From contig NW_006767444.1 in assembly GCF_000264995.1 (NCBI RefSeq), positions 895,252-959,251 on the forward strand: a stretch of DNA of 64,000 nt, given 5' to 3'. The notes beneath the pieces were generated by a model that made no database searches, was not told where the DNA came from, and saw only the letters and a list, made by a program, of their open reading frames with translations. Shown piece after piece: positions 8,841 to 64,000 of the stretch. This DNA is from Punctularia strigosozonata HHB-11173 SS5. Its lineage: Eukaryota; Basidiomycota; Agaricomycetes; Corticiales; Punctulariaceae. Each line of letters begins with the position of its first letter. The first letter of the stretch is position 1. The translations under genes were made by a program, and so were the position numbers.

Positions 8841-9638
8841 CTTCGTCGCCCGTGAACGATATAACTTATGTACCAGTCAGCTGGAAAAGCGGAAGTCTGG
8901 GTGGCGCCAACAGCCCTCACAGAGACGAAGCGCACTCATCCGGATTTCGCACGATACGCCGATCGTCTGCTCTATGTCACTTACCGTGGTGGACGAAATC
9001 TCGGCGTCGCGTGTATTGATGTTCTGATCGTTCAGGAAAGTCGCGAAGATATATCTCTGAGAACGCTGGCCCGCGCGGCGGACATTGACTCGCTGCAACG
9101 ACGACCCAACGTGGAGGGTGTAAGGGTCCTCCTGCTAAACCTAGCCCCCGTCTTCGAGATCTTGATTCTTTGGAACTTCTTGCAGTTCTCCCGGCGACTC
9201 TTGCGGCCCGTGGTTGTTCCGTGCCCGGAGACGAAGCTTAAATTGGACTCAACTCCTCTTGCCCCAAGGACCAAGGTATTGATACAGACTCTAGCCCGTC
9301 CTTGATAGCTATGGGGTAATGCCCGACCGATGGCCAATCGCCCGCTCGATCGTTAAGGCAGCACGAACGAGTGGAACGGCGCATGTCGCTCGAATGCTTC
9401 CCTCCCGGGATCGGAAACGTCGTACGCTCTGTAAGAATGAAACTCTAACAGCATGTGTTCATCACACCACCGAACTTCTCATGTCATGTACGATACCGTG
9501 CATGCTGAGTGCGTAGATAGCACGGCGGCGTTCTCATGCATGTGGTGCGCAGGACATGAGGTTATCGGCAGGCGAGCACATCGTAATTCGGTGACACGTA
9601 TAGGTTGTTCCACCTTTCATCTTTCTCATCCTCCCGCC
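8841..9638. other. Upstream flank of the left outer NLR gene
   Basis: Homologous to the minus strand of about 63347-64000. A 145-codon frame starting at 8868 is not kept in the mirror copy, where the equivalent sequence carries stops, so I read the region as non-coding 5' flank. Confidence 0.5.
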
Positions 9639-12600
9639 ATGACCGAAGCCGCAGGAGACCCTACTCTGCCGTCTGGAGGCCGAGTGAACGACAGCAGTAT
9701 GACTACACCATCCAAGATGTTGGAACTAACTGGTGCGCGTGCTCATACCTATGCGGCTTGTGGACCCGCCTCACTATCGTCGACAGGACTACGCTGCACG
9801 GGCTTGCGCAAACGTCGCTATTATTGTATCATACAGTTTGGGGCCATGTCATTCAAGACCTCTGTCTCCCCTGAAACGAAAGACCCATCTTGGGATGGCT
9901 CCATTCGCCTGTATGTGTCCGATTTAGTCACGATGGATGTCACCGACGCAATCCACAGGTTAGGCGATGCATCCAGCATCATCATCAACGTCCGTAGGCA
10001 GCGGATGTTCTTTTGCGGTAAACTTCGCAGCGACTCCCGAGTGGCTCATATCACCGTCGATCAGCTGGGCTCGCAGCCAACGGGTCAGTGGTTCGCCTAT
10101 ATTCCCTTCCTGTTTCTTGACGTTGGTGCTCGTGCAGATGCTTCCGCGACAGATAGACCTTTGGTCATGGAGGGGCTTCGCCATCGATGGTTGAAAGCTT
10201 CCATTTCCTTCGTCGCCACCCAATCGATGGCGTCTTCTCCATTCAGCCCCGGGACCACAGCGGCTGCCAAGCCTGAACCATCGACACAGCTTCCCCAGGG
10301 CGAGTTATCCGGTCGCGAAGATGGCAACGTTCCAAATAAGGGCTCGGAGAACGAGGAAGATCCCTTTGGGGCTAATGGGTGAGTGACCGAACCGACAGAT
10401 CAACTTCATGGGGGCTCATCTTCCCAGTAAACTTCGCGAACTCGTCCATGACACCAAAGCGGATGCTGATGCGATGCGCTCTGCGCCCGATATTGTCGAG
10501 ACCGTCGCCGATGCTATCCAAACCGGCAAGGATGCCGCCGAGTCTCACAGCGACGCGTTCGAGAGTTGGAAGTTCCTGCTGGACAAGCTGCAGTTTTTCG
10601 TGACTATCTCGGATGGATTAGCTCAGGTAAATGGCACTGCGCAATACGATGCCTCTGTGATAGCTCTTGATGTGACTTATAGATCCATCCTTACGCGCAG
10701 GCGGCCCTCAGCATCATATCAGCCGTTCCGAAGGTAGTGCTCGCTTCCTGGAGAAAAATCCGCCACTCAGTTGCACTTCTGCCGCAGGCAATCATAGAGC
10801 AGACAGGAAAAGATGCAGCCATACGTGATTTGGTGAAGATCATCAACAGGACGTTGAAGCTGATGGACGAAGCCGAGCCTCTTCGTCAAGAAGGCAACCG
10901 ACGAGAGACCGCGAGTCTCATCGCTCAACAAATCGGCGAATGTGCAAAGTTCGTCTCCGATTACGCGAAGACCGAGGGTTTCAGTGAGCATCGCCGTCGA
11001 TAGGTATAACGTAGCTAATTGGAGAGCATGTTCAGCGTTACGGCTCGCTAAGAATTTCGGTTGCGATGTCGAGGGCGCTGTCGCGGAATACAAGAAATGC
11101 CTTGAAGTACTCATTGAAGATTTTGAATGTCATACCAGTGTGGCTACAAACATTGTTGTTCTGGAGGTTCTGGAGAGCGCACGGCGTGTCGGTCGGTGAC
11201 GTCATCCACCCCGTGTATCGCTTTTGTTGACATCGCACAGACCAGAACGTTATCTTCCGCGAGCTTCCCGTTGCGTCGGGCTCAGGCTTCGACCCCGACA
11301 AGGGATGTCTACCTAAGACCCGTATTCCGCTCATCAATCTCATCATTGATTGGATCGATTCCCCCGACGAAGCCAACTCGCAGCGGGTCTTTTGGTTGCG
11401 GGGTCCTGCGGGCGCCGGGAAATCCGCGATTGCTCACACTATCGCCAAGCATTACAATGACAAGAGGAGGCTCGGTAGTATGGTGTGCTTCAATGCCGCC
11501 GGATGCAAGATTGAACAACTATTTCCTACGCTTTCCTTCGATCTATCAGATTTCGATCGAGGATGGAGGAAGGCGCTATGGGAAGCGGTCAAAGACAACA
11601 GTAACCTTCGCCACACCCACTCGCTGCAGCTCCAGTTCGATGGTCTTTTCCTTGGTCCAGCAAAAGCCGTAGCAGAGCATTCTGTGAGCCCTATCGTGAT
11701 CATCCTGGATGCTTTGGATGAGAGTGGCAAAGAATCGGAACGGTCTAAACTGCTGCCATACATATTGCGGCTACAGGAGCTCCCCAACAACTTTCGTTTT
11801 CTGGTCACCTCGAGGGACGAGAAGGACATACGAGACAAACTCACAGACCTGCGATGCGTACGCCAGCAGAATATTGCCGTTTACAACGACACTGTTGACC
11901 ATGATATCGCTCTGTTCGTGCGCGAGGACTTTTCCGCCAAGGCACCTCATATAGTAATGGACGCACGGTGGAAGGGAGAGTCAATGGTACAGGAAATCGT
12001 TAAGGCCGCTGAGAAGTCTTTTCAGTGGGCGTTCACGGCGTGCAGCTTCATCCGAGGAGAAGACAAGTACAAGGAGTACGACTGGCACGATCGTTTCTTG
12101 GCCGTTCTGTCTTCTGGATCTTCGTCGCAAGATCAGGAATCCGGCGTTCGTTACAGTCATCTGGATACCCTCTACAAGCTAGTTCTAGGTCAGCTGTTCG
12201 GGGATGGACCATCGGATCGTTTCAAACGCGTGTTGGGATGTGTCCTCTCAGCAAAGGTACCGTTACCCCTGGATGCACTGGAAGAGCTACAAGAGGAGAA
12301 AGATCCGCGAGGCTGTACCACCAACGTCTTGAACATCATGGGATCTTTGTTATATGGTGTTTCCAACCCAGGAGATCCGATTCGTCCCCTACACAGCTCC
12401 TTTCGTGATTTCCTGACCGACAATTCTCGAAGCGGTGCTTACTGCGTGAATCTTATGGATGCGAATGAGCTGCTAGCCCACTCGACGCTACGAATCATGC
12501 GGACATCGCTTCGCTTCAACATATGCCATCTTGCGTCTTCATACGACCTCAACGACGAGTACGATGATCTTGATCAGCGTATCCTGAACAACGTGACGTC

Positions 12601-15431
12601 TGGTCTCATCTACGCAGTCTGTTATTGGGCGCAACATATCGTCCCTGGACCCGGGGCTACTCTATCCCCCGAATTGCTAACTCAAATCGAAGGATTTTTC
12701 AAGACTCGGGCGTTGTTCTGGTTAGAGTCACTGAGTCTGTTGAACTCATTACAGTCGGGTTCGTCCGCGCTGCTGACGTTGAAGAGAGCCTTGACGGTGA
12801 GCATTCCTATACCGAACGACATTCGCGTGTTAACAAGGCGCTATCTTTTAGGGAAACGATGAGGCGAGCGATGTTCTTCGCTTGGTCGAGGATCTCGATA
12901 GATTCCTCAGTTTATACTGGGACGTGATCTCAATCTCAGCACCCCACATCTATCTCTCTGCTCTTTCCTTCACTCCGGAGACTTCGCTCGTATCTCAAAA
13001 TTATATGGAGTCCTTCCCCAACAGCGCGAGGGTCTTGCAAGGTCGACTGGCTCATTGGCCAGCGTTACGATGCACAATGCAAGGTCACCGGGGTGTTGTC
13101 AGATCTGTCAAGTTTTCGCATGATGGGAAGTGGATAGTATCGGGCTCACATGACTGTACTATTCGTATGTGGGACGCCGAGTCAGGTCAGGCTGTCGGAA
13201 AGCCGTTCGAGGGTCATACGGATACCATTTATTCGGTAGCATTCTCTTCGGATGGGAGACGCATCATCTCAGCCTCCGCCGACAACACCATCCGAATGTG
13301 GGATACAGCAGAGGGCAAGGCGATTGGAGAACCGTTCCGCGGCCATACCGTAGAAGTCAATTCCGTCGCATTCTCGCCACAGGCTGATGATCCGCGCGCA
13401 GTCTCAGGTGCCAATGATTCGACTATTCGCTTATGGGATACGAGCACGGGGAAAATGCTCGGAGAACGCATGAACCACACACACGTTGTAATGTCTGTAG
13501 GATTTTCACCAGATGGAACGCGCCTGGTCTCTGGCTCTGAGGATCATACAATACGCATATGGGATGCGCAATCACAAAAACTCGTGGCAGGACCTCTCTC
13601 AGGTCACGGTGATACTGTCCTTTGTGTCGCCTTTTCACCTGACAGCATGCGCGTTATGTCGGGATCCAGAGATGGCACAATTCGAATCTGGGATGCAGAA
13701 TCCGGGCAGACGATAGTAGGCCCGCTCGTGGGTCACACCCGTCCTGTGACGTCTGCGAGTTTCTCCCCCGACGGAAAGTACATCGTTTCCGGATCAGTGG
13801 ACGACACGATTCGACTGTGGGACGCGAAGAACGGGGCCAAACTCGGAGAGCCGGTTCATTGCCAGAGTATACAAGTTCTGTCTGTGGCGTATTCCCCGGA
13901 TGGATCCCGCATAGCCTCTGGATCATGGGACGGACATGTACGAGTGTGGCACACGGCGGAGATGGCAACGACCAAGGCTTCTGGCACTCCAACTCCTGTT
14001 ATGTCCATCGATGTGACCTCCGATGGCAGCCAAATCGTCGCGGCTGACGTGGATGGCTGGCATCGGTGTTATGATACCGCAACACAAGCGGCCATTGGGA
14101 ATCCTTTCGGCGGTGACGAGCTGCAGAGTGGTAACACACTTTGGTGTGTCGCCTTTTCCCCAGATGGCAGTCGGATAATCTCGGGCTATTACGATGGTAG
14201 CATCCGACTATGGGATGTAGAAAGGGGAACCGTCATCGGAGAGCCGTGGAAAGGCCCGCATAAAGGCCTCATCTCCTCTATTCTCTTCACGCCCAGCGGC
14301 CAGCAAGTGATCTCAGGGTCTTGGGACGGCACTATCTGTGTGTGGGACGTGGAGACTGGTAAAGCGCTCGGTGAATCTTTCAGCGGACACGACGCTGGCG
14401 TTACATCCCTCGCACTATCACCCATCGGCAAAAGACTTATCTCCGGATCAAAGGATCACACCATTCGAGTCTGGGATGTGGAGATTAGACAACCTGTTGG
14501 AGAGCCTCTCCAAGGTCATACCAATGAGGTCAGTTCCGTCGCATACTCCTCAGATGGGAGCCGAATCGTTTCCGGATCGGATGACGTCACGGTCCGGCTG
14601 TGGGACGCAGAGTCCGGGGATCCCATCGGAGAGCCTTTGGTTGGCCGCGCCGTGAACTCCGTGGCATTTTGCTCCCATGATGAGTATGTGATCTCTGGAT
14701 CTTGGGATGGCACGGTACGGATTTGGGGCGTAGGGACGACATCGGGGCCACTGGTCGCCGTTTCACGAGGACATTCGCACGGGGTCGCATCGGTCAAATG
14801 GTCGTCTAAGACGAGCTGCATCGTTTCCGGCTCGTGGGATGGCTCTGTCCGGTCTTGGGACATCCGAGAGCTTATCGGCAAGCCTACCCAATCACTCATG
14901 CAGGACCAAACAGCAGTCGAAGAGCCGATGTTCAACGGCGATACCGGAACCGATGCACCATTATCTTCGGAGTTGACGAGTTCAAAATCTACAGGTGACG
15001 TTCTCCTTTGTTATCCCAAGTCATCGACTCACGGTGCAACTACAGACGAGGACACGACGTCCCCTGATTCTCCGTCTCAGATCTCCATCTGTTTCTCATC
15101 CGCTCCCGAACATCAACTCCGTGACGCTCATACGTTCTTCCCGAACGGCGAGCCAGGATGGAGCCACGCGCGCATGAAAGCTTCATTCGGACTAGCTTCA
15201 TGGAGATCGGACAATAAGGGATGGATTTTAGGTCCCGACGACGAGCGACTACTCTGGGTCCCACAGCATAGTCGTTGGAACCTCTGGCAACCTGCGTCCA
15301 GACTGTTCTTGCCCTCGGAGGAGACGACGATGCTGGATTTGAGCCGCTTCGTGCACGGCGAGAGGTGGGCAGAGTGCTACAAGTTCTACGAGCCCAGGAC
15401 GGACGAGGGCGAAGCTGGTGGAGAGCACTGA
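9639..15431 (+). CDS. C2-NACHT-WD40 NLR-type protein, left outer copy
   Basis: Nine exons join in phase: 9639-9732, 9787-9910, 9959-10378, 10428-10626, 10683-10733, 10788-10983, 11036-11191, 11241-12796 and 12852-15431, giving 1791 residues. A C2-like domain (ELTGLRCTGL, SPETKDPSWDG) is followed by a helical linker. The NACHT ATPase has Walker A GPAGAGKS, Walker B IVIILDALDES, a TSR sensor and the winged-helix motif LHSSFRDFL. Fourteen WD40 repeats then fit two seven-bladed propellers, before a ~160-residue tail with LWQPASR and LDLSRFVHG. The stop between NACHT and WD40 lies in a GTGAGC...TTTTAG intron. Fungal NLRs of this build act in non-self recognition and programmed cell death; the ligand is unknown. 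The C2 and linker resemble the right outer copy, while NACHT resembles the inner copies, so the gene looks recombinant. Confidence 0.88.
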
Positions 15432-16234
15432 GAATGCCGAAGGCTGCGGCGATGATTGTTCGGATCATTCGGAGACGGAACGCACGACACGTATATGATG
15501 TATTTGCATTGGCAGTCAGGATACATGCAAGGTGCATTCTTACCGCTGTATTTTGATAGCCAGACAGGCATGGTAGCAAACACGACGCAGGGAGTGCAAG
15601 CGGCGCCTCTCGATGTTGAGCTTCGAGCTTTCAAGGTACGAGTCATGGCTCCACCAGTCCGAACTTAGGCTGTCGGTGGCATGCATACGACGAGCGGCAA
15701 TGGAGGGAACGACCGGGTTCTAGCTGAGCGAGGCAGCGGGGGCAGCGGTCCCGATTGCTCGTGCTATTGGCTCTCGACGGGTTCACGAAACCCCGGTGAA
15801 CGCGGTTGAGCACGAGCTTGGAGAGGAGGCGTGGTCGAATAAAGTCAAAGGAGCAATGAGCGCAGTCGGGAACGATTTCGCTCTTTCAACTGATTGAGCG
15901 AAACGATCATCGCCAAATAGTGACGCTGACGCACCTTTTTGTGCTTTTTCACATCGTCGAGCAGCATCATGCGTGTCTAGGAGCTCAGCCATATGGAGTG
16001 ATTGAAGCCTTGTACTCATGCAGGCGACGAGTGCTCGTGGATGTTTGTGCCAAGAGAAGCAATCGGTACGTATCCGACGTCGAACACGTAAAAAGAACGG
16101 GGCTTTCAGCGCTGAGCGTTCACGTCTGCATAGAACGGGTGTTATCCAGATCCCTTGGTCGAATTCAATTAGAGTGCGCAAGTCAATCCGAGAGAGGTGC
16201 GTCATAGCACCGTCTATGTATGTAAGGTAAGTTG
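15432..16234. repeat. Conserved NLR 3' flank, copy 1 of 4
   Basis: This block recurs after each of the four NLR genes (also 26944-27725, 44480-45314 and 56705-57512 in matching orientation). Open frames in it are not conserved among copies, so it is likely a 3' UTR plus spacer amplified with the gene. Confidence 0.7.
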
Positions 16235-16706
16235 AAATGTAGAGAAATTGGCCGGGCAATAGAGGTTGTATATGTAACGGCGACCTGTTTGGAGCCCTTG
16301 CTCCCGCGTTGCGAGCTCGACCTCTCTTGTACATGCCTGCTTTCCTCCTCCCCCTCTGCCCTCATCGACGTCAGTAGTAGCAGCCGCGCACAGCGTGCAC
16401 CAGCGTCAATGGCCTGACTATCCTCCTTGCTTGGATGATCGTATTTGCAGCGCTATCAGATCCGCGTTGGGCTTCTGTCTCATTCTGCTTCCGGCCTATC
16501 CGAGGCACGGGCCCTCCGAGTATCTTGCACACCGCCGCCACGGACGACGACGACGACGACAACAACAACAAGAATTTACTCTGCGTTCGTATCTCATGCC
16601 GTCGATGCTGCCTTCACCCCAAGACATCGACCATCGCCTGGGGACCATATGTGAACCGACTCCACCTTGTCGCGTAGGAAGGCCCTGAAGGACACACATA
16701 TACGCC
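16235..16706 (+). promoter_or_regulatory. Copied Lon-protease promoter region (left arm)
   Basis: Homologous to the minus strand of about 42080-42560, upstream of the intact Lon gene. It keeps the GGCCGGGCA word, a TATA-like stretch (TTGTATATG at about 16265) and a GAC/AAC trinucleotide run near 16540-16572. It precedes a broken Lon reading frame, so any transcript would be non-productive. Confidence 0.6.
16540..16572. repeat. Trinucleotide microsatellite (GAC)n-(AAC)n
   Basis: A short run of GAC then AAC units. Equivalent runs of different length occur in the right-arm copy (about 56365-56400) and in the intact Lon promoter (about 42206-42230), as expected of slippage at a shared ancestral site. 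Confidence 0.8.
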
Positions 16707-18130
16707 ATGGAATCCGCACCCCTACCCCCCGCTCTCCACATCTTGCCTCTCCCGTACCCGCTTCTGCTCCTGCCAACCGCTCATTTGATGCCCCTCTTCT
16801 CGTTGCCCGTCGGCGAAGCCCTACTTCACGTCCTCCACACCAGCGACGCGGTTTCCCGCTAGGCCCGCCCCCGCCACGGCACATACGACAGACGACCAAA
16901 GGACCCGTGCACGAACGCCCTCGTATCCCACGACAAGAACACAGCGCCGGTCGTGTTTTCCTTCTCGACAGAGTACTTTGTGCACGCCCAACGCTCGCGG
17001 CGCGATCGCAGCGCGCGACGGCGCTCTGCGTCAAGCGCTCGAGCATCCTCGAAGTGAGCTCGAAGGTGGCGAGCGACGTCGCGGAGAGCCTCGGTCGGCA
17101 GCGAGAAGGTGTTTAAGTCCGGCGGCCGATGACCCGCCACACAGAAGGAGCTCGTCGGTGAGTTTCCTCCGTTCGTCGATCCCTGATTACTGTGAAGTTG
17201 AACCGTTTCGATTTTCTAGCGCTGATCTTGTCCTCGTCGCGCGGGCTCATCGGCGATGGCGCGCAGGGTCCCGTGCGCCGCCGGCGAGCGATCTCGATAC
17301 CGACGAAGGCGCGGATGCGGACGAGCTCGCGGCGCTCCGGGCGAGGATGGGGGCGCTCGTGCCTGTATCCAATGAACGTAAGACACGGCGACCAAGGCGT
17401 CTCAGCGGATGAAAAGGATTCAGCCGAGCAGTGCCGATGCTGGGGTCGTGAGGAGCTATACGTGAGTGCTTCTCTGCGCTTATATGCGTCTCGTTCTCGA
17501 TGGAAGCACGATGCTGACTTTGTCTTGCATTTTGTAGCTGGAATGGCTCGTCGCGCTTCTCTGGCCGACCGCTCGAAGCGACCACGCGAAAGAGAACGAC
17601 GGGACCCTGGCCAACACGGCCTTTTTTGCAGAAGGCGCGCGTACAGCTACGGCGGGATCGTTACGGCGTCGACATGGTCAATCGCCGGTTCATCGAGTAC
17701 TTGGCCGTTGTCTGGTTTCGTGCCCCGGTCGACGGGGAAGATAGTTCTCCGGCGCGGGTGGTTGATCAGGGCAGGATCCGGAGGTGAGGGAGGGCGTGCG
17801 CTCGGTGGGTGGGGAGGTGTCGGTGCCGAAGGAGAGACCGAAGAGGGCACGAGGGGGCGTCAAGGCCCCGATACCGTTGGTTATCGGCCCACCGGGTGCA
17901 GGGAAGATGTCGCTGGGAGCGTCGATTGCTCGCGCTGGACGGACCGTCAGCGAGGGTGTCCCTTGGTATGCTGATTTCACCGCATTCGAACGCTTAACTG
18001 ACACTGACATCGACGTCGAAGGTGAAACGCGCGATGAAGCGGAGATCGGCGGGCATAGGAGGACGTACGTCGCTAGCGGCCTTCGACGATGGATCGTGCA
18101 GGCCATCAGCATGGCGATGTTGCTCGACGC
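16707..18130 (+). pseudogene. Broken 5' part of a Lon protease gene (left arm)
   Basis: Starts with an ATG whose product (MESAPLP, then [13 protein letters not shown]) mirrors the start of the intact Lon at 42075, but the frame fails soon after. Most of the Lon N domain is missing. Recognisable islands follow in several frames: [20 protein letters not shown], a Walker A remnant [17 protein letters not shown] (intact gene: [17 protein letters not shown]), and HRRTYVASG. Homology ends near 18130 inside the AAA+ domain; the protease domain is absent. Several frame breaks are present, so no Lon can be made. It sits between two NLR genes in the same orientation. Confidence 0.88.
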
Positions 18131-19596: not shown

Positions 19597-20646
19597 GGCC
19601 ATCCCGGTCTCGGCGTGATATACCCTTACACACCACATCACGCACCCTATCGACACTTGCCACCCATCTCGATAATGTAGCATCTCAGCACACGCCGCAT
19701 TCCACGCATTTATGCACGCATATCGACATTTATCTATCAGGGATACGCTCGTGAATAACGTCGTAGCCCACTCTCCGCTCCTTGCTAATTCGCATACTCG
19801 CTGATATATGGACAAGAATGTGTTCTGCTCTGCTGCTTTACTTTGCTGTGTTCGCCTGCTTTCTGGTGCATTGGCGCTTGCCGCCTCATATACTCTTCAT
19901 GCTCTCTGTCCACAAGCCGTGCTGAATTGTTTTATTTATGCTCTCGAACATGTATCACCGAACCACAGAAATCTAAGATCTTGTCATGAATGTTCCGTAG
20001 CCAGCTCTACAATACGGTACCTATTCCGCCTTGACCCCGTCAGATCTTGTGGATTGCGCGGGCATATACTCTACATGTCTTGAGTGGTCGAGACGCTCGT
20101 GGACGGCTGGACGGACGCAGGCGAATAATCGAATTGGCAAGCACTGCAGGCGTGATGCGTCGCGGTGTCTGGCTCACTACCAGCACTTTTACAGCAAACC
20201 ACCGTCACGTCATGCGCAGTCTTGATTTTCTGCACATCGCACATATGTTCAAGCTTCAAGCTTGAAGTCCCGCCGCAAGTTACCCAGCGTCCCCGGTGCT
20301 CGAGCCCGACCCGACTGAAGCTTGGGGCTTCAATCAAGACGTCCTGTACTGAGGCTGTTTCATGAAACCCTGAAACCAACGGCACCACCCCCACCTGCCA
20401 TTCTACCACCACCTTATCCGCGATCGGCAATAGGTTGGGCTATTCAGGGCGATGCTCCGTCCGATATGGATGGTCCCGTGAATACCATGCAGGCAGTTCG
20501 CTTCACGGCAGACTCCCACACCGCTTCAAGGCCTCCTCATCTTACCCTGTTACACCGGCGTTGGCGCAACTGATAGCTCACATTCAAGGGACCTCACCGT
20601 GTGTGACTCGAGGAGACATCCTAACGGCGAGGCTGGGATACCTGCC
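19597..20646. other. Upstream flank of the left inner NLR gene
   Basis: Mirrors 51821-52867 closely. Open frames differ between the two copies, so it is read as promoter and 5' flank. A small HindIII-type palindrome near 20250-20266 is partly duplicated here but single in the mirror copy. Confidence 0.5.
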
Positions 20647-52867: not shown

Positions 52868-54830
52868 CTACATCCTTCTCGCAGCCTTCGGGTTGTTCTC
52901 CTTGCCGGTGCCACTCTGCTCGCTCTCGCTCTGATTCGCCGCGTCTCGGCTCTTGATCGGCGTCCTCGTCGATTCGTCAACCGACACACGCTTTCTTACG
53001 CTCGTCGTCCAGGAATGAGGTATGGCCGAGGGCGAGGAGCGAGCGCCGGAAGGCGACTGGTGGTTGAGCCTATGCGAGGTGTGGACGTTGTTCCAGACAC
53101 GGAAGACCGGGGCTCGAAGATGGATAAAGGGAAGCCCATTGTCCCTGCGATCCTCGCTTTTGTTGCGGTGCTCGATCCGCTCGAGCCCACGGACCCTACC
53201 GAGTCGGGATTCGGGCGAGACGTGAGCGCCTTGGCTGTCGTATTGGCTTCGGACATGGTCGACGAAGGTCGAGAAGAGTTGAGTGTGTCGGCGACGACGG
53301 ATGGCCGACGCAAGGCCGGCGTAGCCAGCACCGACTCCTGTCGCGTCGCCTTGGAGAGCGTAGGTGCACCTCCCGTCGCAGCGCGGACAGCGAGTTTCCA
53401 TTTCACCTTCAAGGAGTTGAGATCAGCCTTGTCTTTGCACACGAAGACCGAACAGCTGACAAGTCTCAGCTCTTGCTGCTCGGAATCCAAAGCAACATCC
53501 AGGCCTTCGTTATCCTCTTCCTTAGCCACGAGCTGCTTGCTCATGCACTATCTTCAGGTGCTTGTCGGAACCCTCCATCTTCAGCTCGTGCGCCCCCTTC
53601 CGCAGCTTGTTTGCCTCGATCGCCGAGCGCCTTGACCCGCTCCTCGAGGGCCCGGAGCTGCTCCTCCGCCTCGGCCTTCTCCTCGATTACTTGCGAGACG
53701 CGTTCGTCGGAGCACTTGTCACTCTCGTCAAGCGTCCGGCGATGCTCGCCTGCAAGGCGATCGTGTTCGCGTTCGACGGCGGACAACTGCTCGCGAAGGC
53801 TCTCGCTTGTCATCGCATGAGACGACACGACGGCTAAGGTTCTCGATCTCGGCGTCGAACTCCTGGACAAGTTCTTCTGCGCGTGCAGCGTTAGCGACGT
53901 TCGTGCTCCAGCTCGGATATGCGTACGTCGCATTCTTGAACAGCCGACTCCAGTTCATCAGCGTGAGCGCGTTCCCGCCCAATCTCTTCCTCGAGCTGAA
54001 CGCCTCGTTCAGCCACCGAACGCTCAACCGCGCAACGGGATGCTTACCTGTTTCCCCCCGCGCTCCGAATCCTCCTTGACAGCGAGGACCTCTTGCACCT
54101 CGGCCTCCAGCTCCATATTCCTGTTATCGCTTGGCTGCCACTCCACCTCCATCCTTCGCTGACACTCTGATCAAACTGCGCCCTCGCCACATCATTCTCC
54201 CTCGTCGCGGTTCATCTTTTCGTCAGCCTCCTCCGTACCATTCTACTGCGCTTCGAGTTCGGCCTTGAGCAAATCGTACTCCTGTTTGCGCTTCGTCCGC
54301 CGCTCCTCCAGCCCATCGATCGGGCCCGCGCGCTGTCACGCGTCCCGCTTCTCCGCGAGCGATAGTTCCAGAGCCGCACGCTCGTGCTCGCATATCACCA
54401 TGGAATTGTCGCCCTCGCCTGCCGCGAGCCGCTCCATCATCTCCATGTGCTCCTTCACCTCACGGATGCCCCTCGCAACTTCCTCGCCTCGTTCTGGTCC
54501 CGTAGAACGGACTACTTCTTCCCTGCCGCTCCTCGCTCAGCCTCCCATACAACGACGCGGCTCCGCTCATCCGTGACACTCCTCTCAACGCTTTCCTATC
54601 GACCCCTATCCACATGCTTCTCCGACCCTCGACACGTCCTCTCCAGTTCCCCAACGCGATTCTTCTACGCCCGGCGCTTCTTCACCTCCGCCTCCACGCG
54701 CGCACTTGCCCGCGAGCACGTTCACGAGCACGTTCCTTGCCCGGAGATCGATCTCGAACAGCTTGCACATATCCTCCCGGAGCAAGAGCTACGTGCCCAA
54801 CGACATGACCCGATCTTCCTCAGCCGGCGT
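52868..54830 (-). pseudogene. Broken 3' part of a coiled-coil protein gene (right arm)
   Basis: The same relic as 18131-19596 but more complete: it keeps about 0.5 kb (54075-54600) with further coiled-coil sequence (EHERAALELSLAEKRDA, EYDLLKAELEAQ). It carries internal stops and frame changes of its own. The end reads RTPIKSRDAANQSESEQ and KENNPKAARRM before the stop at 52868. It joins the Lon relic at about 54831 at the same point as in the left arm, so the fusion predates arm duplication. Confidence 0.7.
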
Positions 54831-56235
54831 CGTCCTGCGTCGAGCAACATCGCCATGCTGATGGCCTGCACGATCCATCGTCGAAGGCCGCTAGCGACAT
54901 ACGTCCTCCTACGCCCGCCAATCTCCGCTTCATCGCGCGTTTCACCTTCGACGTCGATGTCAGTGTCAGTTGAGCGTTCGAATGCGATGAAATCAGCATA
55001 CCAAGGGACACTCTCGCTGACGGTCCGTCCAGCGCGAGCAATCGACGCTCCAAGCGACATCTTCCCTGCACCCGGTGGGCCGATAACCAACGGTATCGGG
55101 GCCTTGACGCCCCCTTGCGCCCTCTCCTTCCACACCACCCACCAAGCGCACGCCCTCCCTCACCTGCTTCCCTGATCAACCACCCGCGCCGGAGAACTCT
55201 CTTCCCCGTCGACCGGGGCGCGAAACCAGACGACGGCCAAGTACTCGATGAACCGGCGATTGACCATGTCGATGCCGTAACGATCCCGCCTTAGCTGTGC
55301 GCGCGCCTTCTGCAGAAAAGGCCGTGTTGGCCAGGATCCCGTCGTTCTCTTTCGCGTGGTCGCTTGGAGTGGTCGGCCAGAGAAGCGCGACGAGCCATTC
55401 CAGCTACAAAATGCAAGACAAAATCAGCATCGTGCTTCCATCGAGAACGAGACGCATATAAGCGCAGAGAACCACTCACGTATAGCTCCTCACGACCCCA
55501 GCCTCGGCACTGCTCGGCTGAATCCTTCTCGTTCGCTTACACGCCTTGGTCGCCGCGTCTTACGTTCATTGGATCCAGGCACGAGCGCCCCCATCCTCGC
55601 CCGGAGCGCCGCGAGCTCGTCCGCATCCGCGCCTTCGTCGGTATCGAGGTCGCTCGCCGGCGGCGCACGGTGCCCTGCGCGTCATCGCCGATGAGCCCGC
55701 GCGACGAGGACAAGATCAACGCTAGAACATCGAAACGGTTCAGCTTCACAGTACTCAGGGATCGACGAATGGAGGAAACTCACCGACGAGCTCCTTCTGT
55801 ATGGCGGATCATCCCGCCGCCGGACTTAAACACCTTCTTGCTGCCGACCGAGGCTCTCCGCGACGTCGCTCGCCGCCTCCGAGCTCATTTCGAGGATGCT
55901 CGAGCGCTTGATGCAGAGCGCCATCGCGCACTGCGATCGCGCCGCGAGCGTCGGGCGTGCACAAAGTACTCTGTCGAGAAGGAGCACACGACCGGCGCCG
56001 TGTTCTTGTCGTGGGATACGAGGGCGTTCGTGCACGGGTCCTTTGGTCGTCTGTCGTATGTGCCGTGGCGGGGGCGGGCCTAGCGGGAGACGGCGTCGCT
56101 GGTGTGGAGGACGTGGAGGAGGGCATCGCCGACGGGCACCGAGAGGAGGGGCATCAAATGAGCGGTTGGCAGGAGCAGAAGCGGGTACGGGAGAGGCAGG
56201 ATGTGGAGAGGGGGGGGTAGGGGTGCGTATTCCAT
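54831..56235 (-). pseudogene. Broken 5' part of a Lon protease gene (right arm)
   Basis: Mirror of the relic at 16707-18130. It begins MEYAPLPPPLHILPLPYP, loses frame, lacks most of the N domain, keeps [17 protein letters not shown], and ends in the AAA+ domain. It shares the missing N-domain segment and the same 3' join with the left copy, so the breaks mostly predate the inverted duplication. Confidence 0.88.
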
Positions 56236-56704
56236 GGCGTATAGATGTGTGCTTCAGGGCCTCTTACGCGACGAGGAGTCGGTTCACATATGGTCCCTAG
56301 GCGATAGTCGATGTCTTGCGGTGAAGGCAGCATCGACGGCATGAGGTATTAACGCAGAGTACATTCTTGTTGTTGTTGTCGTCGTCGTCGTCGTCGTCCG
56401 TGGCGGCGGTGTGCAAGATACTCGGAGGGCCCGTGCCTCGGATAGGCCGGGAGCAGAATGAGACAGAAGCCCAACGCGGATCTGATAGCGCTGCAAATAC
56501 GATCATCCAAGCAAGGAGGATAGTCAGGCCATTGGCGCTGGTGCACGCTGTGCGCGGCTGCTACTGCTGACGTCGATGAGGGCGGAGGGAAAGGAGGAAA
56601 GCAGGCATGTGCAAGAGAGGTCGAGCTCGCAACGCGGGGAAGGGAGCACGGGCTCCAAACAGGTCGTCGCTACATATATAACCTCTGTTGCCCGGCCAAC
56701 TTCT
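56236..56704 (-). promoter_or_regulatory. Copied Lon promoter region (right arm)
   Basis: Mirror of 16235-16706, with a TATATATA-type box near 56673-56680, the GGCCGGGCA word and a longer GAC/AAC microsatellite near 56365-56400. Confidence 0.6.
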
Positions 56705-57512
56705 CTACATTTCAACTTAACTTACATACATAGACGGTGCTATGACGCACCTCTCGGTTTGACTTGCGCACTCTAATTGAATTCGACCAAGCGTTCTGGA
56801 TAACGCCCGTTCTTCGCAGACGTGAACGCTCAGCGCCGAAAGCCCCGTTCTTTTGACATGTCCGACGTCGGATACGGACCCGGTTGCTTGTCTTGGCACA
56901 AACGTCCACGACCGCTCGTCGCCTACACGAGTACAAGGCTTCAATTGCTCCAGATGGCTGAGCGCGAGCTCCTAGACACACATGATGCTGCTCGACGATC
57001 AGAAAAGCACAAAAAGGTGCGTCAACGTCACTATGATCGCTTCTCTCAATCGGAAGACATAGCGAAATCATTCCCGACTGCGCTCTTCGCTCCTTTAACC
57101 TTATTCGACCACGCCCTCCTCTCCAAGCTCGTACTCCACCGCGCTCGCCGGAGTTTCGTGAACACGCCGAGAGCCCGTAGCACGAACAATCGCGACCGCT
57201 GCCCTCGCTGCCTCCCTCAGCTAGAACCCGGTCGTTCCCTCCATCGCTGTTCGCCGTACGCATACCACCGACAGCCCAAGTTCGGACTGCTGGAGCAACG
57301 CCTGGTACCTTGATAGCTCGAAGCCCAACATCGAGAGGCGCCGCTTGCACTCACTGCGTCGTGTTCGCTACCATCCCTGTCTAGCTATCAAAATACAGCG
57401 GTAAAAATGCACTTAGCATGTATCCTGAATGCCAACGCAAATACATCATATGCGTGTCGTGTGTTCCGTCTCCGAACGATCCGAACAATCATCGCAGCAG
57501 CCATCGGCATTC
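56705..57512. repeat. Conserved NLR 3' flank, copy 4
   Basis: Minus-strand counterpart of 15432-16234. No conserved frame. Confidence 0.7.
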
Positions 57513-60500
57513 TCAGTGCTCTCCACCAGCTTCGCCCTCGTCCGTCCTGGGCTCGTAGAACTTGTAGCACTCTGCCCACCTCTTGCCGTGCACGAAGCGG
57601 CTCAAATCCAGCATCGTCGTCTCCTCCGAGGGCAAGAACAGTCTGGACGCAGGTTGCCAGAGGTTCCAACGACTATGCTGTGGGACCCAGAGTAGTCGCT
57701 CGTCGTTGGGACCTAAAATCCATCCATCATCGACCGATCCCCATGAGGTTAGTCCGAATGAAGCTTTCATGCGCGCGTGGCTCCATCCTTGCTCGTCGTT
57801 CGTGAAGAACGTATGAGCGTCACGGAGTCGATGTTCGGGGTCGGATGAGAAACAGATGGAGATTTGAGACGGAGAAGCAGGGGACGTCGTGTCCTCATCT
57901 GTAGTTGCACCATGAGTGGATGACTTGGGATAACAAAGGAAAACGTCACCTGTAGATTTTGAACTCGTCAACTCCGAAGATAATGGTGCACCGGTTCCGG
58001 TATCGCCGTAGAACATCGGCTCTTCGACTGCTGTTTTGTCCTGCATGAGTGGCTGGGCAGGCTTGCCGATAAGCTCTCGGATGTCCCAAGACCGGACAGA
58101 GCCATCCACGCAGCCGGAAACGATGCAGCTCGTCTTAGACGACCATTTGACCGATGTGACCAGGTGCGAATGTCCTCGTAAAACGGCGACCAGTGACCCC
58201 GAGGTCGTCCCTACGCCCCAAATCCGTACCGTGCCATCCAGAGATCCTGAGATCACATACTCATCGTTGGAACAAAATACCACGGAGCTCACGGGGCCGT
58301 CATGGCCAACCAAAGGCTCTCCGATGGGATCCCCGGACTCTGCGTCCCACAGCCGGACCGCGACGTCATCCGATCCGGAAACGATTCGGCTCCCGTCTGA
58401 GGAGTATGCGACGGAATTGACCTCATCGGTATGACCTTGGAGAGGCTCTCCAACAGGCTTTCTAGTCTCCACATCCCAGATTCGGAGGGTCTCATCCATT
58501 GATCCGGAGACAAGTCGTTTGCCGTCGATGGGCGATAGTGAGAGAGATGTAACACCAACGTGGTGTCCGCGCAAAGATTCGCCGAGCGCTTTACCAGTCT
58601 CCACGTCCCACACACAGATAGTGCCATCCGCAGACCCTGAGATCACTTGCTGGCCGCCGGGCGTGAAGAGAATAGAGAAGACGGCGTCTATATGCGGGTC
58701 TTTCCACGGCTCTCCGACGACGGTTCCTTTCTCTACATCCCGTAGTCGGATGCTACCATCGTTATAGCCCGAGATTATCCGACTGCCATCTGGAGAGAAT
58801 GCGACACACCGAATTGAGGTACCACTCTGCAGCTCGTCACCGCCAAAAGGTTTCCCAATGGCCGCTTGTGTTGCAGTATCATAACACCGATGCCAGCTAT
58901 ACAAGTCAGCCGCGACGATTTGGCTGCCATCGGAGGTCACATCGATGAACAAAACAGGAGTTGGAGTGCCAGAAGCCTTGGTCGTTGCCATCTCTGCCGT
59001 GTGCCACACTCGTACATGTCCGTCGTATGATCCAGAGGCTATGCGGGATCCATCCGGGGAATACGCCACAGACAGAACTGCTATACTCTGGCAATGAACC
59101 GGCTCTCCGAGTTTGGCTCCGTTCTTCGCGTCCCACAGTCGAATCGTGTCGTCGAATGATCCGGATACGATGTACTTTCCGTCGGGGGAGAAACTCGCAG
59201 ACGTCACACCACTGGTGTGACCCACGAGCGGGCCTACTATCGTCTGCCCAGATTCTGCATCCCAGACTCGAATTGTGCCATCCCTGGATCCCATCACGAC
59301 GCGCTTGCTGTCAGGTGAAAAGGCGACGCAATCGACAGAATCATCGTGTCCTGAGAGAGGTCCTGCCACGACTTCTTGTGATTGCGCATCCCATGTGCGT
59401 ATTGTATGATCCTTAGAGCCAGAGACCAGGCGCGTTCCATCTGGTGAGAATCCTACAGAGTATACACCGTCTGTGTGGCCCTTCATGGGTTCTCCGAGCA
59501 TTTGCCCCGTGCTCGTATCCCATAAGCGAATAGTCCTATCATCGGACCCTGAGACTGCACGCGGATCATCAGCCCGAGGCGAGAATGCGACAGAATTGAC
59601 TTTGTCGGTATGGCCGCGGAACGGTTCTCCAATCGCCTTGCCATCTGATGTATCCCACATTCGGATGGTGTTGTCGGCGGAGGCTGAGATGATGTGCCTC
59701 CCATCCGAAGAGAATGCTACCGAATAAACTTCACCCGTATGACCCTCGAACGGCTTTCCGACAGCCTGACCTGACTCGGCGTCCCACATACGAACAGTAC
59801 AGTCTTCAGAGCCCGAAACTATCCACTTCCCATCGTGTGAAAACTGGACAGATCTGGTCCCATATCGGTGACCTTGCATTGTGCATCGTAACGCCGGCCA
59901 ATGAGCCAGTCGACCTTGCGAGACCCTCGCGCTCTCCGGAAAGAACTCCATGTAATTCTGAGATACGAGCGAAGTCTCCGGAGTGAAGGGAAGAGCAGAG
60001 AGATAGATGTGGGGTGCCGAGATTGAGATCACGTCCCAGTATAAGCTGAGGAATCTATCGAGATCCTCGACCAAGCGAAGAACATCGCTCGCCTCATCGT
60101 TTCCCTAAAAGATACCGCCTCGTTAAGACATGAATATGGTTCGGTATAGGAATGCTCACCGTCAAGGCTCTCTTCAACGTCAGCAATGCGGACGAGCCCG
60201 ACTGTAATGATTTTAACAGGCTCAGTGCTTCTAACCAGAACAAAGCCCGAGTCTTGAGAAATCCATCGATCTGAGGGAGCAATCCGGGAGACAGAGTAGC
60301 CCCGGGTCCAGAACCGATATGGATATGTTGTGCCCAATAACGGACTGCGTAGATGAGACCAGGCGTCATGTTGTTCGGAATACGCTGATCAAGACCATCG
60401 TACTCGTCGTTAAGCTTGTACGACGTCTCGAGGTGGCAAATGTTGAATTTGAGATATGTCGTCATGATGCGCAATGATGATTGGGCGAGAAGATCATCTG

Positions 60501-63346
60501 CGGCTTTGACATGTACGTGGTAGTTCCCGCTCCTTTTGGCGTCGGTAAGAAACTCCCGAAAGGAACTGTGTAGCGGACGAATCCGAGTCCGCGTATCTGA
60601 ATTCAAAACGCCGTACATCAGCGAGCCCGCGGCCTTGAGTAGGTTGGATGTGCGGTCCGGTTCCTCGTGGTTATGAAGGAGCTGTTCCAACGTCCGCAGG
60701 GACACAGGCTCTCGCACTGTGAGGGCGCACCCCATCACTCGCTCATAGTGCTCCGACGGATTCTTCCCATACAGCTTCTCCAAGATGGTTTTGTACAAGG
60801 AATCGAGCTTACGATACTCCGGACCAGAATTCTGCCCCCCGGAGGCAGATGACAATACAGCCTGGAAACGATCGTGCCAGTTGTAGTCTTTGGGCTCATC
60901 TTCACCACGGATAAACGTGCATGCAGTTGATGCCCAATGAAATAGTGACTGCGCCGCCGTAACAAGTTGATTCAACATCAGTCCAGCATCCCACCGCGGA
61001 TCGGCGGTTATCTTGCGAACAGGGAGGAGTCGGCTTTCAATAAACCTATGAATATCCGCGTCCACGTCACGATGGGGAAGACTGGCGATATCATAGCGTC
61101 GCACGGGATCCATGATGTCCTTTTGGTTATCGCGGTTGGCTAAACCATCGAAAGCATCCATGATGTCCTGTTCGTCGCGGGACGTAATCACAAAACGCAA
61201 TGCGGACGAAAGCTTGGCAAGCCGCGCGATATATGGCAATAGTGTAGCGCGGCTCTTTTCATCGCCGCTTTCGTCCAATGCGTCGATGATGATTACGATG
61301 GGACCTATGGCTCGAGCCTCCACATCTTTCGCAGGTCCAACCAAGAGGCCGTTGAACTGACGCTCCAAAGAATCGGTCGTGCTGAGATCGTGCTCGCCCT
61401 TAAGAGCGTCGCAGAGAGCTTTCTTCCACCCTACGTCAAAGTTCGCAAGGCTAGCTGCAATCGTGGGGAAGAGGCGCAGGAATTGTCGGTCCTTGATGGA
61501 GCTACTGAAACAGAAGATACATCCAAGTCGTTCGTTCACCTTGCACCACTCCGCTACGGAGTGGGCGACCGCAGACTTGCCGGATCCTGCGGGGCCATGG
61601 AGCAGGAAAAGGGGTTCGAAGCCCGAAGAGATCCAATTCGAGATCAATTGAATCAGCGGCACGCGAGTGTCCTCTAAGCACCGTTTCTCAGGCACATAGC
61701 CGGACCCTGGAGCCTCCAGAAGCTTGTCCAAAGTAAGCGCATCGCCTGCTGATGTTTATCCGCATGGTCATAGATCCGTGGTTGAAAGGACCGACCTATA
61801 TCTCCAACGCTTCCCAGAACCCTTAACGTGACGATATTCGTAGTCACAATGGTATTGTCCAGAAATTCTTTTACGAGTTTGTCAAGGCATCCCGTGTATT
61901 CCTCGACAGCGCCTTTGACATCGCCACCAATATTCTCGACAAGCCGTGACGCTGAGCATGATCTCCCGTAAGCTACATTTCACCTATCGACTGCGATGCT
62001 TACTAAAGCCCTCGGTCCTCGCGTATTTGGTAATGAAGTGGGCACATTCGCCGATTTGTCGAGCGATGAGACTCGCGGTCTCTCGTCGGTTGCCCTCTTG
62101 ACGAAGAGTCTTGGCTTCCTGCATCAGCTTCAACGCCCTATTGATGGTTTCCACCAGATCACGTATGTCTGCATCTTTTTCTGTCTGCGCTATGATAGCC
62201 TGCGGTAGAAATGAAGTTGAGTAGCGATTTTCTCCGGAAGCAAACATTACCTTCGGGACGGCTGATATGATGCTCAGGGCCAGCTGCGCGTAGGGATGGA
62301 TCTATAAATCACATCAAGAGCTATCACAAAGGCATCGATTCGTGCAGTGCTCTTTACCTGAGATATTCCATTCGAGATCGTCACGAAAAATTGTAGCTTA
62401 TCCAGCAGGAATTTCCATTTCTCGAACGCGTCGCTGTGAGACTCGGCGGCATCCTCGCCGGCTTGGATGGCGTTGGCGACGGTCCCGACAATGCTGGGCG
62501 CGGAGCGCATCGCATTAGCACGCGTTTCGGCGTCCTGGAGGAGTTTGCGAAGTTCACTGAAAAAGATAAGCCCCCATGAAGCTGGTGTGTCCGTGCGGTC
62601 ACTCACCCATCTGCCCCAAACGGATCTTGCTCGTTCTCCACATCCTGAGTTGGAACGTTGCCGTCTCCGCGGCCGGATGACTCGCCCTGAGGAAGCTGTG
62701 TCGATGTTTCAGGCTTGGCAGCCGCTGTGGTCCCGGGGCTGAATGGAGGAGACGATACCAATTGGGTAGCGACGAAGGAAATGGAAGCCTTCAAACGCCG
62801 ATGGCGAAGCCCCTCCATAACCAAAGGTCGATCTATCGTGATAGCATCTGCACAAGCATCACCATCAAGAAGCAAGGGGGAACTATATACGAGCCACGGA
62901 CCCGTTGGCTGCGAGCCCAGCTGATCGACGGTGACCTGTGCCACTCGGGAGTCGCTGCGAAGTTGATCGCAAAAGAACGTCCGCTGCCTACAGACGTTGA
63001 TGACGATGCTGGACGCATCACCGTCCCTGTGGATTGCGTCGGTGATATCCATCATAACTGTTTCAAATACATACAGGCAAATGGGGTCATCCCAAGATGG
63101 GTCTTTCGTTTCAGGGGAGACGGGCGTCTTGCGCGATGCAGTCCCATATCGTATGGTACAATAGTAGCGACGTTCGGGCAAGCCCGTGCAGCGTAGTCCT
63201 GTCGACGATAGTGAGGCGGGTCCACAAGCCGCATAGGTATGAGCACGCGCACCATTTAGTTCCAACATCTTGAGCGGTGTAGTCGCACTGCTATCATTCG
63301 TTCGGCCTCCAGACGGCAGCGCGGGGTCTCCTGCGACTTCGGTCAT
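57513..63346 (-). CDS. C2-NACHT-WD40 NLR-type protein, right outer copy
   Basis: Start ATG at 63346, with the same exon plan as 9639-15431. The C2-like part (LRCTGLPERRYYCTI, SPETKDPSWDD) and helical linker closely match the left outer gene. The NACHT exon (61745-60160) is a distinct lineage: GPAGSGKS, IVIIIDALDES, and LHSSFREFLTD, with about ten more codons and low identity to the other three until roughly NNMTPGLIYAVRYWAQHI. The WD40/tail exon (60104-57513) again has 14 repeats plus the family tail, close to the other copies outside blade loops. No coding break was noticed. This gene probably keeps the older outer-type NACHT, while its mirror partner acquired an inner-type one. Confidence 0.87.
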
Positions 63347-64000
63347 GGCGGGAGGATGAGAAAGATGAAAGGTGGAACGACTTATACGTGTCACCGAATT
63401 ACGATGTGCTCGCCTGCCGATAACCTCATGTCCTGCGCACCACATGCATGAGAACGCCGCCGTGCTATCTACGCACTCAGCATGCACGGTATCGTACATG
63501 ACATGAGAAGTTCGGTGGTGTGATGAACACATGCTGTTAAAGTTTCATTCGTACAGAGCGTACGACGTTTCCGATCCCGGGAGGGAAGCATTCGAGCGAC
63601 ATGCGCCGTTCCACTCGTTCGTGCTGCCTTAAAGATCAAGCGGGCGATTGGCCATCGGTCGGGCATTACCCCATAGCTATCAAGGACGGGCTAGAGTTTG
63701 TATCAATACCTTGATCCTTGGGGCAAGAGGAGTTGAGTCCAATTTAAGCTTCGTCTCCGGGCACGGAACAACCACGGGCCGCAAGAGTCGCCGGGAGAAC
63801 TACGAGAAGTTCCAAAGAATCAAGGTCTCGAAGACGGGGTAGGTTTGGCACAGGAGGACCCTCCTCGTTGGGTCGTCGCTGCGGGTCAATGTCTGCCGCG
63901 CGCCAGCGTTCTCGAACATATGGCTTTGCGACTTTCCTGAACGATCACAACATTAATACACACGAAGCCGAGATTTCGCCCCGATTACCACAGGAAGTGA
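63347..64000. other. Upstream flank of the right outer NLR gene
   Basis: Mirror of about 8975-9638; no conserved reading frame. Confidence 0.5.

What the first reader, a model, noticed from the sequence alone, without database searches (positions are those of the whole stretch)
8975..64000. Giant imperfect inverted repeat of NLR cassettes around a block of housekeeping genes
Two arms of about 19 kb, each with outer NLR, Lon relic, coiled-coil relic and inner NLR, face each other across a ~16.5 kb single-copy core holding importin-beta, LSM7, a Cid1-type polymerase, an unknown gene and Lon. Arms this long could recombine and flip the core, or exchange sequence between NLR copies. The element order is seen directly; the consequences are inferred. 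I know of no described NLR cluster built this way.
Basis: partly seen in the sequence, partly recalled or inferred. Interest (0 to 1): 0.85.

Follow-up and report, generated by a model that had tools for sequence, protein, structure and literature searches.

The report
Inverted-repeat cluster of four fungal NLRs
Four related immune-receptor-like genes, probably from a mushroom-type fungus, sit as two mirror-image pairs around a block of ordinary genes, and their sensor ends look as if they swap sequence with one another while the contact residues change fast.

Summary
The inverted repeat is in the sequence: the left arm (8977-27827) matches the reverse complement of the right arm (44355-64000) across a 16.5 kb single-copy core. 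The right arm meets the window edge, so arm length is a minimum. Each arm carries two NACHT-WD40 genes pointing at the core, a truncated Lon copy and a decayed coiled-coil gene. The two N gaps (21373-21597, 50662-51034) look false: their flanks are exact 350 and 417 bp overlaps, and removing N and overlap brings both inner NLRs to NLR A's spacing (902, 902, 897 bp). The inner arms and core hold no N. The outer arms join by these overlaps, with one diagnostic base on the left and five on the right, so an allelic left join is not excluded. The four WD40 exons are about equally diverged (dS 0.10-0.135) with conflicting site patterns, although NACHT dS reaches 1.5-1.7. The four WD40 codons under selection in Podospora HET-D/E have dN/dS 2.17 here, against 0.42 elsewhere. 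Most likely this is a segmental inverted duplication whose copies exchange sequence. One clustering test for exchange tracts did not hold under stricter controls; the conflict test did. Core flipping is untested. New variant of a known kind.

The parts
8977..27827 (+). left arm of the inverted repeat (minimum extent)
   Evidence: self-BLAST; pairwise profile
44355..64000 (-). right arm, mirror image; cut by the window end
27828..44354 (.). single-copy core: importin-beta, LSM protein, Cid1-like polymerase, unknown ORF, Lon
   Evidence: identity collapses at 27828
21373..21597 (.). gap 1 (225 N), inside NLR B; flanks 21023-21372 and 21598-21947 identical
50662..51034 (.). gap 2 (373 N), inside NLR C; flanks 50245-50661 and 51035-51451 identical
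9639..15428 (+). NLR A (outer left): N-terminal region, helical exons, NACHT exon from 11231, 55 bp intron 12797-12851, WD40 exon 12852-15428
   Evidence: limits read from frames by eye, not from a gene finder
20482..26940 (+). NLR B (inner left), spans gap 1; NACHT exon from 22746, WD40 exon 24361-26940; C2-like exon carries an in-frame stop
45318..51985 (-). NLR C (inner right), spans gap 2; NACHT exon from 49506, WD40 exon 47891-45318; C2-like exon carries two in-frame stops
57516..63346 (-). NLR D (outer right) with divergent NACHT (61755 to about 60400) and the common WD40 exon 60104-57516
16241..18126 (+). Lon relic, left arm: matches core Lon 42548-40030, frames broken, protease part absent
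54841..56706 (-). Lon relic, right arm
   Evidence: not scanned with Pfam
18382..19466 (+). coiled-coil gene relic, left arm; lacks 517 bp present on the right
   Evidence: coiled coil judged by eye
52999..54593 (-). coiled-coil gene relic, right arm, with the extra 517 bp at 54077-54593
29745..30533 (-). importin-beta exon; the gene probably begins near 31600 (by frames) and may end below 29745
   Evidence: 29748-30533: HEAT_EZ 1.3e-23, TPR_IMB1 1.4e-21; the next frame 30782-31432 gave no Pfam hit; frames
32344..32750 (+). LSM-domain protein (LSM7 by recall of its sequence)
   Evidence: LSM 1.6e-08 on 32559-32750; the piece 32344-32510 gave no hit
35936..36646 (-). Cid1/MTPAP-like nucleotidyltransferase, central palm
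   Evidence: MTPAP-like_central 1.9e-11
37510..38403 (+). unknown ORF
   Evidence: no Pfam hit
38726..42120 (-). core Lon gene: AAA and Lon_C above cut-off, substrate-binding domain just below it

Best explanation
A two-NLR tandem array ([NLR - Lon fragment - coiled-coil fragment - NLR]) beside the Lon gene was copied in inverted orientation to the other side of a housekeeping block, giving four NACHT-WD40 receptors that all point at the block. The copies have kept exchanging sequence by homologous gene conversion. The WD40 sensor exons of all four are shared among the copies, while N-terminal and NACHT modules stay more private. Selection drives change at the WD40 loop residues expected to touch the ligand. 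The receptors probably work as other fungal NLRs do: ligand binding by the propeller, NACHT oligomerisation, then a cell-death or defence output. Shown: arms, order, open NACHT and WD40 reading frames, conflicting site patterns, selection pattern. Inferred: history, conversion as the cause of the conflict and of the uneven divergence, receptor function, correctness of the two scaffold joins.
For: Mirror blocks in order. The inner pair and core are free of N. Gap flanks are exact 350/417 bp terminal overlaps; C3 agrees with C2's end at five bases where C2's start differs, and C1 agrees with C2's start at the one base where C2's end differs. Removing N plus overlap gives anchor spacing 902 (B) and 902 (C) against 897 (A, no gap). 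All four keep open NACHT and WD40 exons; B-C NACHT dN/dS 0.34. WD40 dS 0.098-0.135 in all 6 pairs against NACHT dS 0.074 to 1.70. WD40 two-two splits 24/19/16 against 70/8/2 in NACHT. Outside the loop codons the two minority WD40 splits hold 23 sites, while parallel change on a star tree gives 2.5 to 8.0 and never 23 in 2000 simulations for each of three rate models. Divergence of four segments taken as non-coding ranges 1.9% to 11.6% (chi2 p 6.5e-31). Gap-free identical runs of 268 bp (outer, 15429-21372) and 220 bp (inner) were reached in 0 of 1000 shuffles each. Sharp changes of identity near 12.0 kb (A against B/C) and 60.4 kb (D against all). A-priori codons 7, 9, 25, 27 of Paoletti 2007 (passages): dN/dS 2.17 against 0.42, and the set ranks second of 111,930 four-position sets by amino-acid-changing differences.
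Against: No reads, other strain or genome is available, so the outer joins rest on overlaps and on the scaffolder. Only one base in the shared stretch of about 350 bp supports the left join. Tract-like clustering of WD40 splits (3 of 5000 shuffles) is mostly short-range: it is reached in 133 of 20000 shuffles with one site per codon, 2103 of 20000 when loop codons are also left out, 810 of 20000 on third positions, and 5434 of 20000 with sites at least 10 bases apart. Different constraint can also make divergence uneven. The inner NLRs have stops in their C2-like exon and may be N-truncated or decaying. No expression or function data.
Confidence: 0.68

Rival explanations
1. Heterotype false duplication: only the inner pair B/C is a true inverted repeat, and the outer pieces (window 8977-21372 and 51035-64000) are two alleles of one flank placed on both sides.
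For: Gaps between duplicated pieces on one scaffold are a mark of false duplication (PMC9516828, passages). Both gaps sit exactly at the arm pieces. The left join has a single diagnostic base. Incompatibility-type loci can have very divergent alleles (general knowledge).
Against: The right join has five diagnostic bases in its 417 bp overlap. Each join completes one inner NLR at the same spacing. WD40 divergence of A-D (dS 0.098) is close to that of B-C (0.122), which lie in one contig.
Confidence: 0.17
2. The scaffold merges two haplotypes that differ by an inversion of the core, each having the NLR arm on one side only.
For: Arms that are 84-100% identical per 250 bases outside 10971-12658 are in the range of divergent haplotypes; contigs end in the repeat.
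Against: Needs both a real inversion polymorphism and a chimera; the 29 kb stretch 21598-50661 with B, core and C holds no N.
Confidence: 0.06
3. No ongoing exchange: the four genes come from several duplications of different age, and the uneven identity reflects different constraint.
For: Coding segments differ in constraint; in NACHT the AD|BC split dominates as plain descent predicts (70 of 80); clustering of WD40 splits into tracts is not robust.
Against: Segments taken as non-coding range from 1.9% to 11.6%. WD40 splits conflict far beyond parallel change. WD40 dS is about 0.12 where NACHT dS is about 1.5 in the same gene pairs. Identity changes sharply.
Confidence: 0.09

Closest known systems
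Podospora anserina nwd/hnwd family (HET-D, HET-E, HET-R); PMC1805685 (passages and section 7), PMC2873952 and PMC12222747 (passages)
   Same: NACHT plus WD40; divergent NACHT clades combined with WD40 domains that evolve together; diversifying selection at the same four loop positions of each repeat
   Different: There the repeats are highly conserved within a gene (over 80% in PMC12222747) and are shuffled; here they share only 36-37% on average, so exchange looks in-register between genes; no HET domain found in the pieces scanned; a gene-scale inverted repeat is not mentioned in the passages read
Sordariales NLR clusters (PMC12258605, passages)
   Same: NLRs clustered within 40 kb and with fewer than eight other genes between them; exchange proposed as a diversifier
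   Different: 225 of their 272 clusters hold two NLRs and only 16 consist of paralogous copies; head-to-head pairs are reported there, not a mirrored four-gene array around a core, in the passages read
Amphioxus VCBP2/5 immune cluster (PMC2632668, passages)
   Same: immune-type gene cluster rich in inverted repeats, with haplotype variation and gene conversion discussed
   Different: animal; inverted repeats are pieces within and around the genes, not whole mirrored receptor arrays around housekeeping genes, in the passages read
Mammalian Y-chromosome palindromes (abstract start in search listing; details recalled)
   Same: large inverted repeats that exchange sequence by gene conversion
   Different: those arms are nearly identical (recalled); here 84-100% per 250 bases outside 10971-12658, with immune-type genes and a long spacer

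Membership tests
Fungal NLR (STAND) of NACHT-WD40 type | NACHT-type NTPase | tested here: met
   NPHP3_N 1e-19 (A), 3.9e-20 (B), 8.6e-19 (D); NACHT PF05729 above its cut-off in B only; C not scanned but 95% identical to B
Fungal NLR (STAND) of NACHT-WD40 type | P-loop and Walker B motifs intact | tested here: met
   GPAG[AST]GKS and IVII[LI]DALDES in 4 of 4 copies (alignment; motifs recalled)
Fungal NLR (STAND) of NACHT-WD40 type | C-terminal repeat domain | tested here: met
   WD40 1.3e-134 in A, others 85-87% identical to A; best PDB sequence match 2ymu, 6e-179; AlphaFold model with propeller strands, Foldseek best 2ymu then Apaf-1
Fungal NLR (STAND) of NACHT-WD40 type | recognisable N-terminal effector domain | tested here: inconclusive
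   C2 hit below cut-off: 18.8 bits against 22 in B, 12.0 bits (E 0.25) in D, none in A; fold of the A region unusable, pLDDT 34.5
HNWD (HET-D/E/R) family | positive selection at WD40 codons 7, 9, 25, 27 | tested here: met
   dN/dS 2.17, bootstrap 95% range 1.33-3.99, against 0.42
HNWD (HET-D/E/R) family | high internal conservation of repeats | tested here: not met
   mean within-protein repeat identity 36-37%, maximum 60%, in 4 of 4 proteins; no WD40 array by TRF
HNWD (HET-D/E/R) family | N-terminal HET domain | tested here: not met
   no HET hit in the N-terminal pieces of A, B and D that were scanned; C not scanned
HNWD (HET-D/E/R) family | WD40 exchange between family members | tested here: met
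   conflicting splits among 4 copies beyond parallel change, 0 of 2000 simulations under each of three rate models outside loop codons; clustering into tracts not robust; genes elsewhere in the genome could not be examined
Gene-converting large inverted repeat | mirror arms with signs of conversion between them | tested here: met
   mirror arms; uneven divergence and long identical runs; conversion is the inferred cause
Gene-converting large inverted repeat | inversion of the spacer | not testable with these tools
   needs reads or several strains
Assembly false duplication | half read depth over the duplicated copies | not testable with these tools
   no reads

The most novel reading that the evidence does not exclude
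The inverted repeat works as a diversity generator for immune-type receptors. Pairing of the arms lets four receptors share and recombine one WD40 sensor pool in register while their NACHT and N-terminal modules stay apart, and it can flip the housekeeping core. Sensor diversity like that of Podospora would then arise without repeat shuffling.
Probability: 0.22. Interest if true: 0.75.

Novelty: new variant of a known kind. Interest (0 to 1): 0.53.

Why it matters
If real, it shows the selection signature of the Podospora incompatibility receptors, at the same four loop positions, in NLRs whose WD repeats are not internally conserved. Sensor diversification would then not depend on repeat shuffling, and exchange between genes held in mirror arrays becomes a testable alternative source. 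It is also a concrete case where a mirror array breaks a scaffold assembly inside the immune-type genes themselves.

Tried and rejected
Rejected: the 350 and 417 bp direct repeats beside the gaps as real tandem duplications, because they are exact to the contig ends and the gene spacing fits only without them. Rejected: the 517 bp in the right arm as an inserted element; it reads as coiled-coil sequence by eye, so a deletion on the left is likelier. Rejected: the Lon relics as working genes; broken frames, no protease part. Weak: a C2 domain at the N-terminus; AlphaFold on it failed (pLDDT 34.5). Nothing found: tRNAs, Rfam families at gathering threshold. No whole genome is held for the window; the prokaryote, phage, plasmid, viral and metagenome collections were not searched, because the window looks eukaryotic.

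Weakened on checking: my first clustering test of WD40 splits (3 of 5000 shuffles) counted neighbouring bases of one codon. Under four stricter selections it gave 133, 2103, 810 and 5434 of 20000, so I no longer claim long tracts inside the WD40 exon. The evidence for exchange there is now the conflict among splits. The longest-run test skipped gap columns and was repeated with gaps as breaks.

My first hypervariable set (six positions, dN/dS 2.02) was chosen after looking at the data. I replaced it with the four codons published by Paoletti 2007; a set swapping one of the four for position -26 carries more changes, so the published set ranks second. Two of the 13 repeats used (alignment columns 194 and 542) are one or two residues out of register because of insertions and were left in, which works against the result; a degenerate repeat near column 410 was not used. 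The pairs among four copies are not independent, and dN/dS on exchanging sequences is rough.
Full report
WHAT IS THERE. Self-BLAST of the window gives four mirror blocks in order. The left arm is 8977-27827, the right arm 44355-64000, and the single-copy core 27828-44354 (16.5 kb). Because the last block ends at base 64000, the arms may be longer. Identity along the arms varies from 84 to 100% per 250 bases outside 10971-12658 (last helical exon and NACHT of the outer NLRs, 54-74%), an alignment gap at 18.4 kb and the innermost 70 bases. Beyond 27827 it drops to about 50%. Four genes of the same build lie in the arms, A and B on the plus strand at the left, C and D on the minus strand at the right, so all point at the core. 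Pfam gives NPHP3_N for A, B and D and a long WD40 domain for A; C is 95% identical to B over the NACHT exon. All four have open NACHT stretches (541-553 codons, stop to stop) and WD40 stretches (858-863 codons), separated by a 55 bp GT-AG intron in A (sequence printed; limits read by eye). Between the two NLRs of each arm lie a Lon copy cut off before its protease part, with broken frames, and a decayed coiled-coil gene (by eye).

ASSEMBLY. The window holds two N runs, 225 and 373 long. I call the pieces C1 (to 21372), C2 (21598-50661) and C3 (from 51035). The last 350 bases of C1 equal the first 350 of C2, and the last 417 of C2 equal the first 417 of C3, exactly. The two ends of C2 are near-identical inverted copies of each other, so an assembler would be expected to stop there. 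In the shared stretch C1 agrees with C2's start at the one base where C2's end differs. C3 agrees with C2's end at five bases where C2's start differs. With N and overlap removed, the distance between two anchors (C2-like exon and helical exon; anchor places) is 902 in B and 902 in C, against 897 in A, which has no gap; as deposited it is 1477 and 1692. So the gaps look false and the joins plausible: strong on the right, thin on the left. C2 holds B, core and C without N, so the inner inverted repeat does not depend on scaffolding. False duplications with gaps between copies are a known assembly error (PMC9516828, passages), so I keep the allelic reading of the outer arms at 0.17.

HISTORY. 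Core Lon lies downstream of NLR C in the same orientation, and the Lon relics lie downstream of A and D in the same orientation. A tandem [NLR-Lon] duplication followed by an inverted copy of the whole block explains this. A piece of about 80 bp that lies upstream of core Lon (42603-42683) recurs at the inner edge of the left arm (27736-27814, 84%) and, less well, of the right arm (44351-44443, 75%), which fits a break near Lon. This history is inference.

EXCHANGE. In the WD40 exon, all six gene pairs have dS 0.098-0.135. In the NACHT exon of the same genes, dS is 0.074 (B-C), 0.43-0.48 (A against B and C) and 1.48-1.70 (D against the rest). Two-two splits in WD40 are 24 AD|BC, 19 AC|BD and 16 AB|CD; in NACHT they are 70, 8 and 2. 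Outside the loop codons the WD40 counts are 15, 13 and 10. Parallel change on a star tree, with per-branch rates taken from the singletons, would put 2.5 sites in the two minority splits with even rates, and 5.6 or 8.0 with strongly uneven rates; the observed 23 was reached in 0 of 2000 simulations each time. Like splits also lie side by side more often than in shuffles (3 of 5000), but this is mostly short-range and does not survive stricter controls (133, 2103, 810 and 5434 of 20000), so long tracts inside the WD40 exon are not shown. NACHT identity of A to B/C rises from about 65% to 90% near 12.0 kb, and that of D to the others from 37-73% to 80-92% near 60.4 kb. Arm segments taken as non-coding differ by 10.1% (3' flank A/D), 5.1% (Lon relic), 1.9% (coiled-coil region) and 11.6% (3' flank B/C), p 6.5e-31 for equality. 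Gap-free identical runs of 268 bp (outer) and 220 bp (inner) were reached in 0 of 1000 shuffles. Gene conversion among the copies is the simplest cause. Against it: coding segments differ in constraint, and in NACHT the AD|BC split that plain descent predicts dominates.

SELECTION. Paoletti et al. 2007 (PMC1805685, passages) found codons 7, 9, 25 and 27 of the WD repeat under positive selection, around conserved codons 8 and 26. Set on the conserved aspartate before the third strand (my placement), these are positions -25, -23, -7 and -5 from the repeat's tryptophan. Over 13 repeats and four copies, dN/dS there is 2.17 (bootstrap over repeats 1.33-3.99) against 0.42 for the other repeat codons; by amino-acid-changing differences the set ranks second of 111,930 possible four-position sets. 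Of 52 position quartets 50 are distinct, and in 11 of 13 repeats all four copies differ. At these codons 189 of 312 comparisons differ, 101 of them by two or three bases, against 534 of 2937 and 61 elsewhere in the repeats. In the AlphaFold model (mean pLDDT 66.8, pTM 0.46; 81-97 per ten residues over 81-330, 46-93 over 331-680, the rest under 70), -7 and -5 lie in a turn in 13 of 13 repeats, -25 in a loop in 11 of 13, and -23 in the start of the next strand in 13 of 13. Unlike Podospora, repeats within one protein are only 36-37% identical on average.

FUNCTION. The parts are those of a fungal NLR; the best solved relatives of the propeller model by Foldseek are 2ymu and Apaf-1, at TM-scores of only 0.35-0.39 by query length. 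I take the genes to be non-self receptors with a cell-death or defence output; this is inference from the family. The N-terminal domain is unsettled: a sub-threshold C2 match in B and a very weak one in D, a failed fold, and in-frame stops in the C2-like exon of B (one) and C (two). C2 domains are reported as N-terminal domains of NLRs in a few basidiomycetes (PMC4986451, passages). With the short intron this makes a basidiomycete host likely, but the organism is not identified.

KNOWN OR NEW. NLR clusters, WD40 exchange and selection at these positions are known (PMC1805685, PMC2873952, PMC12258605, PMC12222747; passages, and section 7 of the first). Searches of the open-access library listed no paper that I recognised as describing a mirrored NLR array around a housekeeping core; the lists were capped in five of these seven calls, and most listed papers were seen only as titles and abstract beginnings. 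I rate it a new variant of a known kind.

Noticed in passing
6450-6916 and 6933-7109: Outside the left arm, a decayed importin-beta fragment (67% to core 29759-30255; TPR_IMB1 1.4e-04, below its cut-off) sits beside a fragment of an NLR WD40 3' end: perhaps a further broken [NLR-importin] unit.
   Followed up: partly
60400-61755: The NACHT of NLR D is 56-58% identical in DNA to the other three over its first 1370 columns, while against A the stretch upstream (to about 62.0 kb) is 82-87% and the WD40 part 88-96% identical: a module swap, or an old module left out of conversion.
   Followed up: yes
20482-21054 and 51985-51413: The C2-like exon of both inner NLRs shares an in-frame stop, and C has a second one; the inner receptors may have lost that part.
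   Followed up: partly
54077-54593: 517 bp of coiled-coil sequence present only in the right arm; probably deleted from the left.
   Followed up: yes
42684-44350: 1.7 kb between core Lon and NLR C without a match elsewhere in the window (ORFs of 30 or more codons), flanked by direct copies of a Lon-upstream piece (72% and 89% over 54 and 28 bases).
   Followed up: partly
1100-1561 and 3630-3755: eIF5A gene (minus strand) and a LIM domain (plus strand) in the left flank.
   Followed up: no
15429-20480: C/T differences between the arm parts taken as non-coding lie most often before G (56 of 141), not before A (26); weak hint of CpG decay rather than RIP, without a composition control.
   Followed up: no
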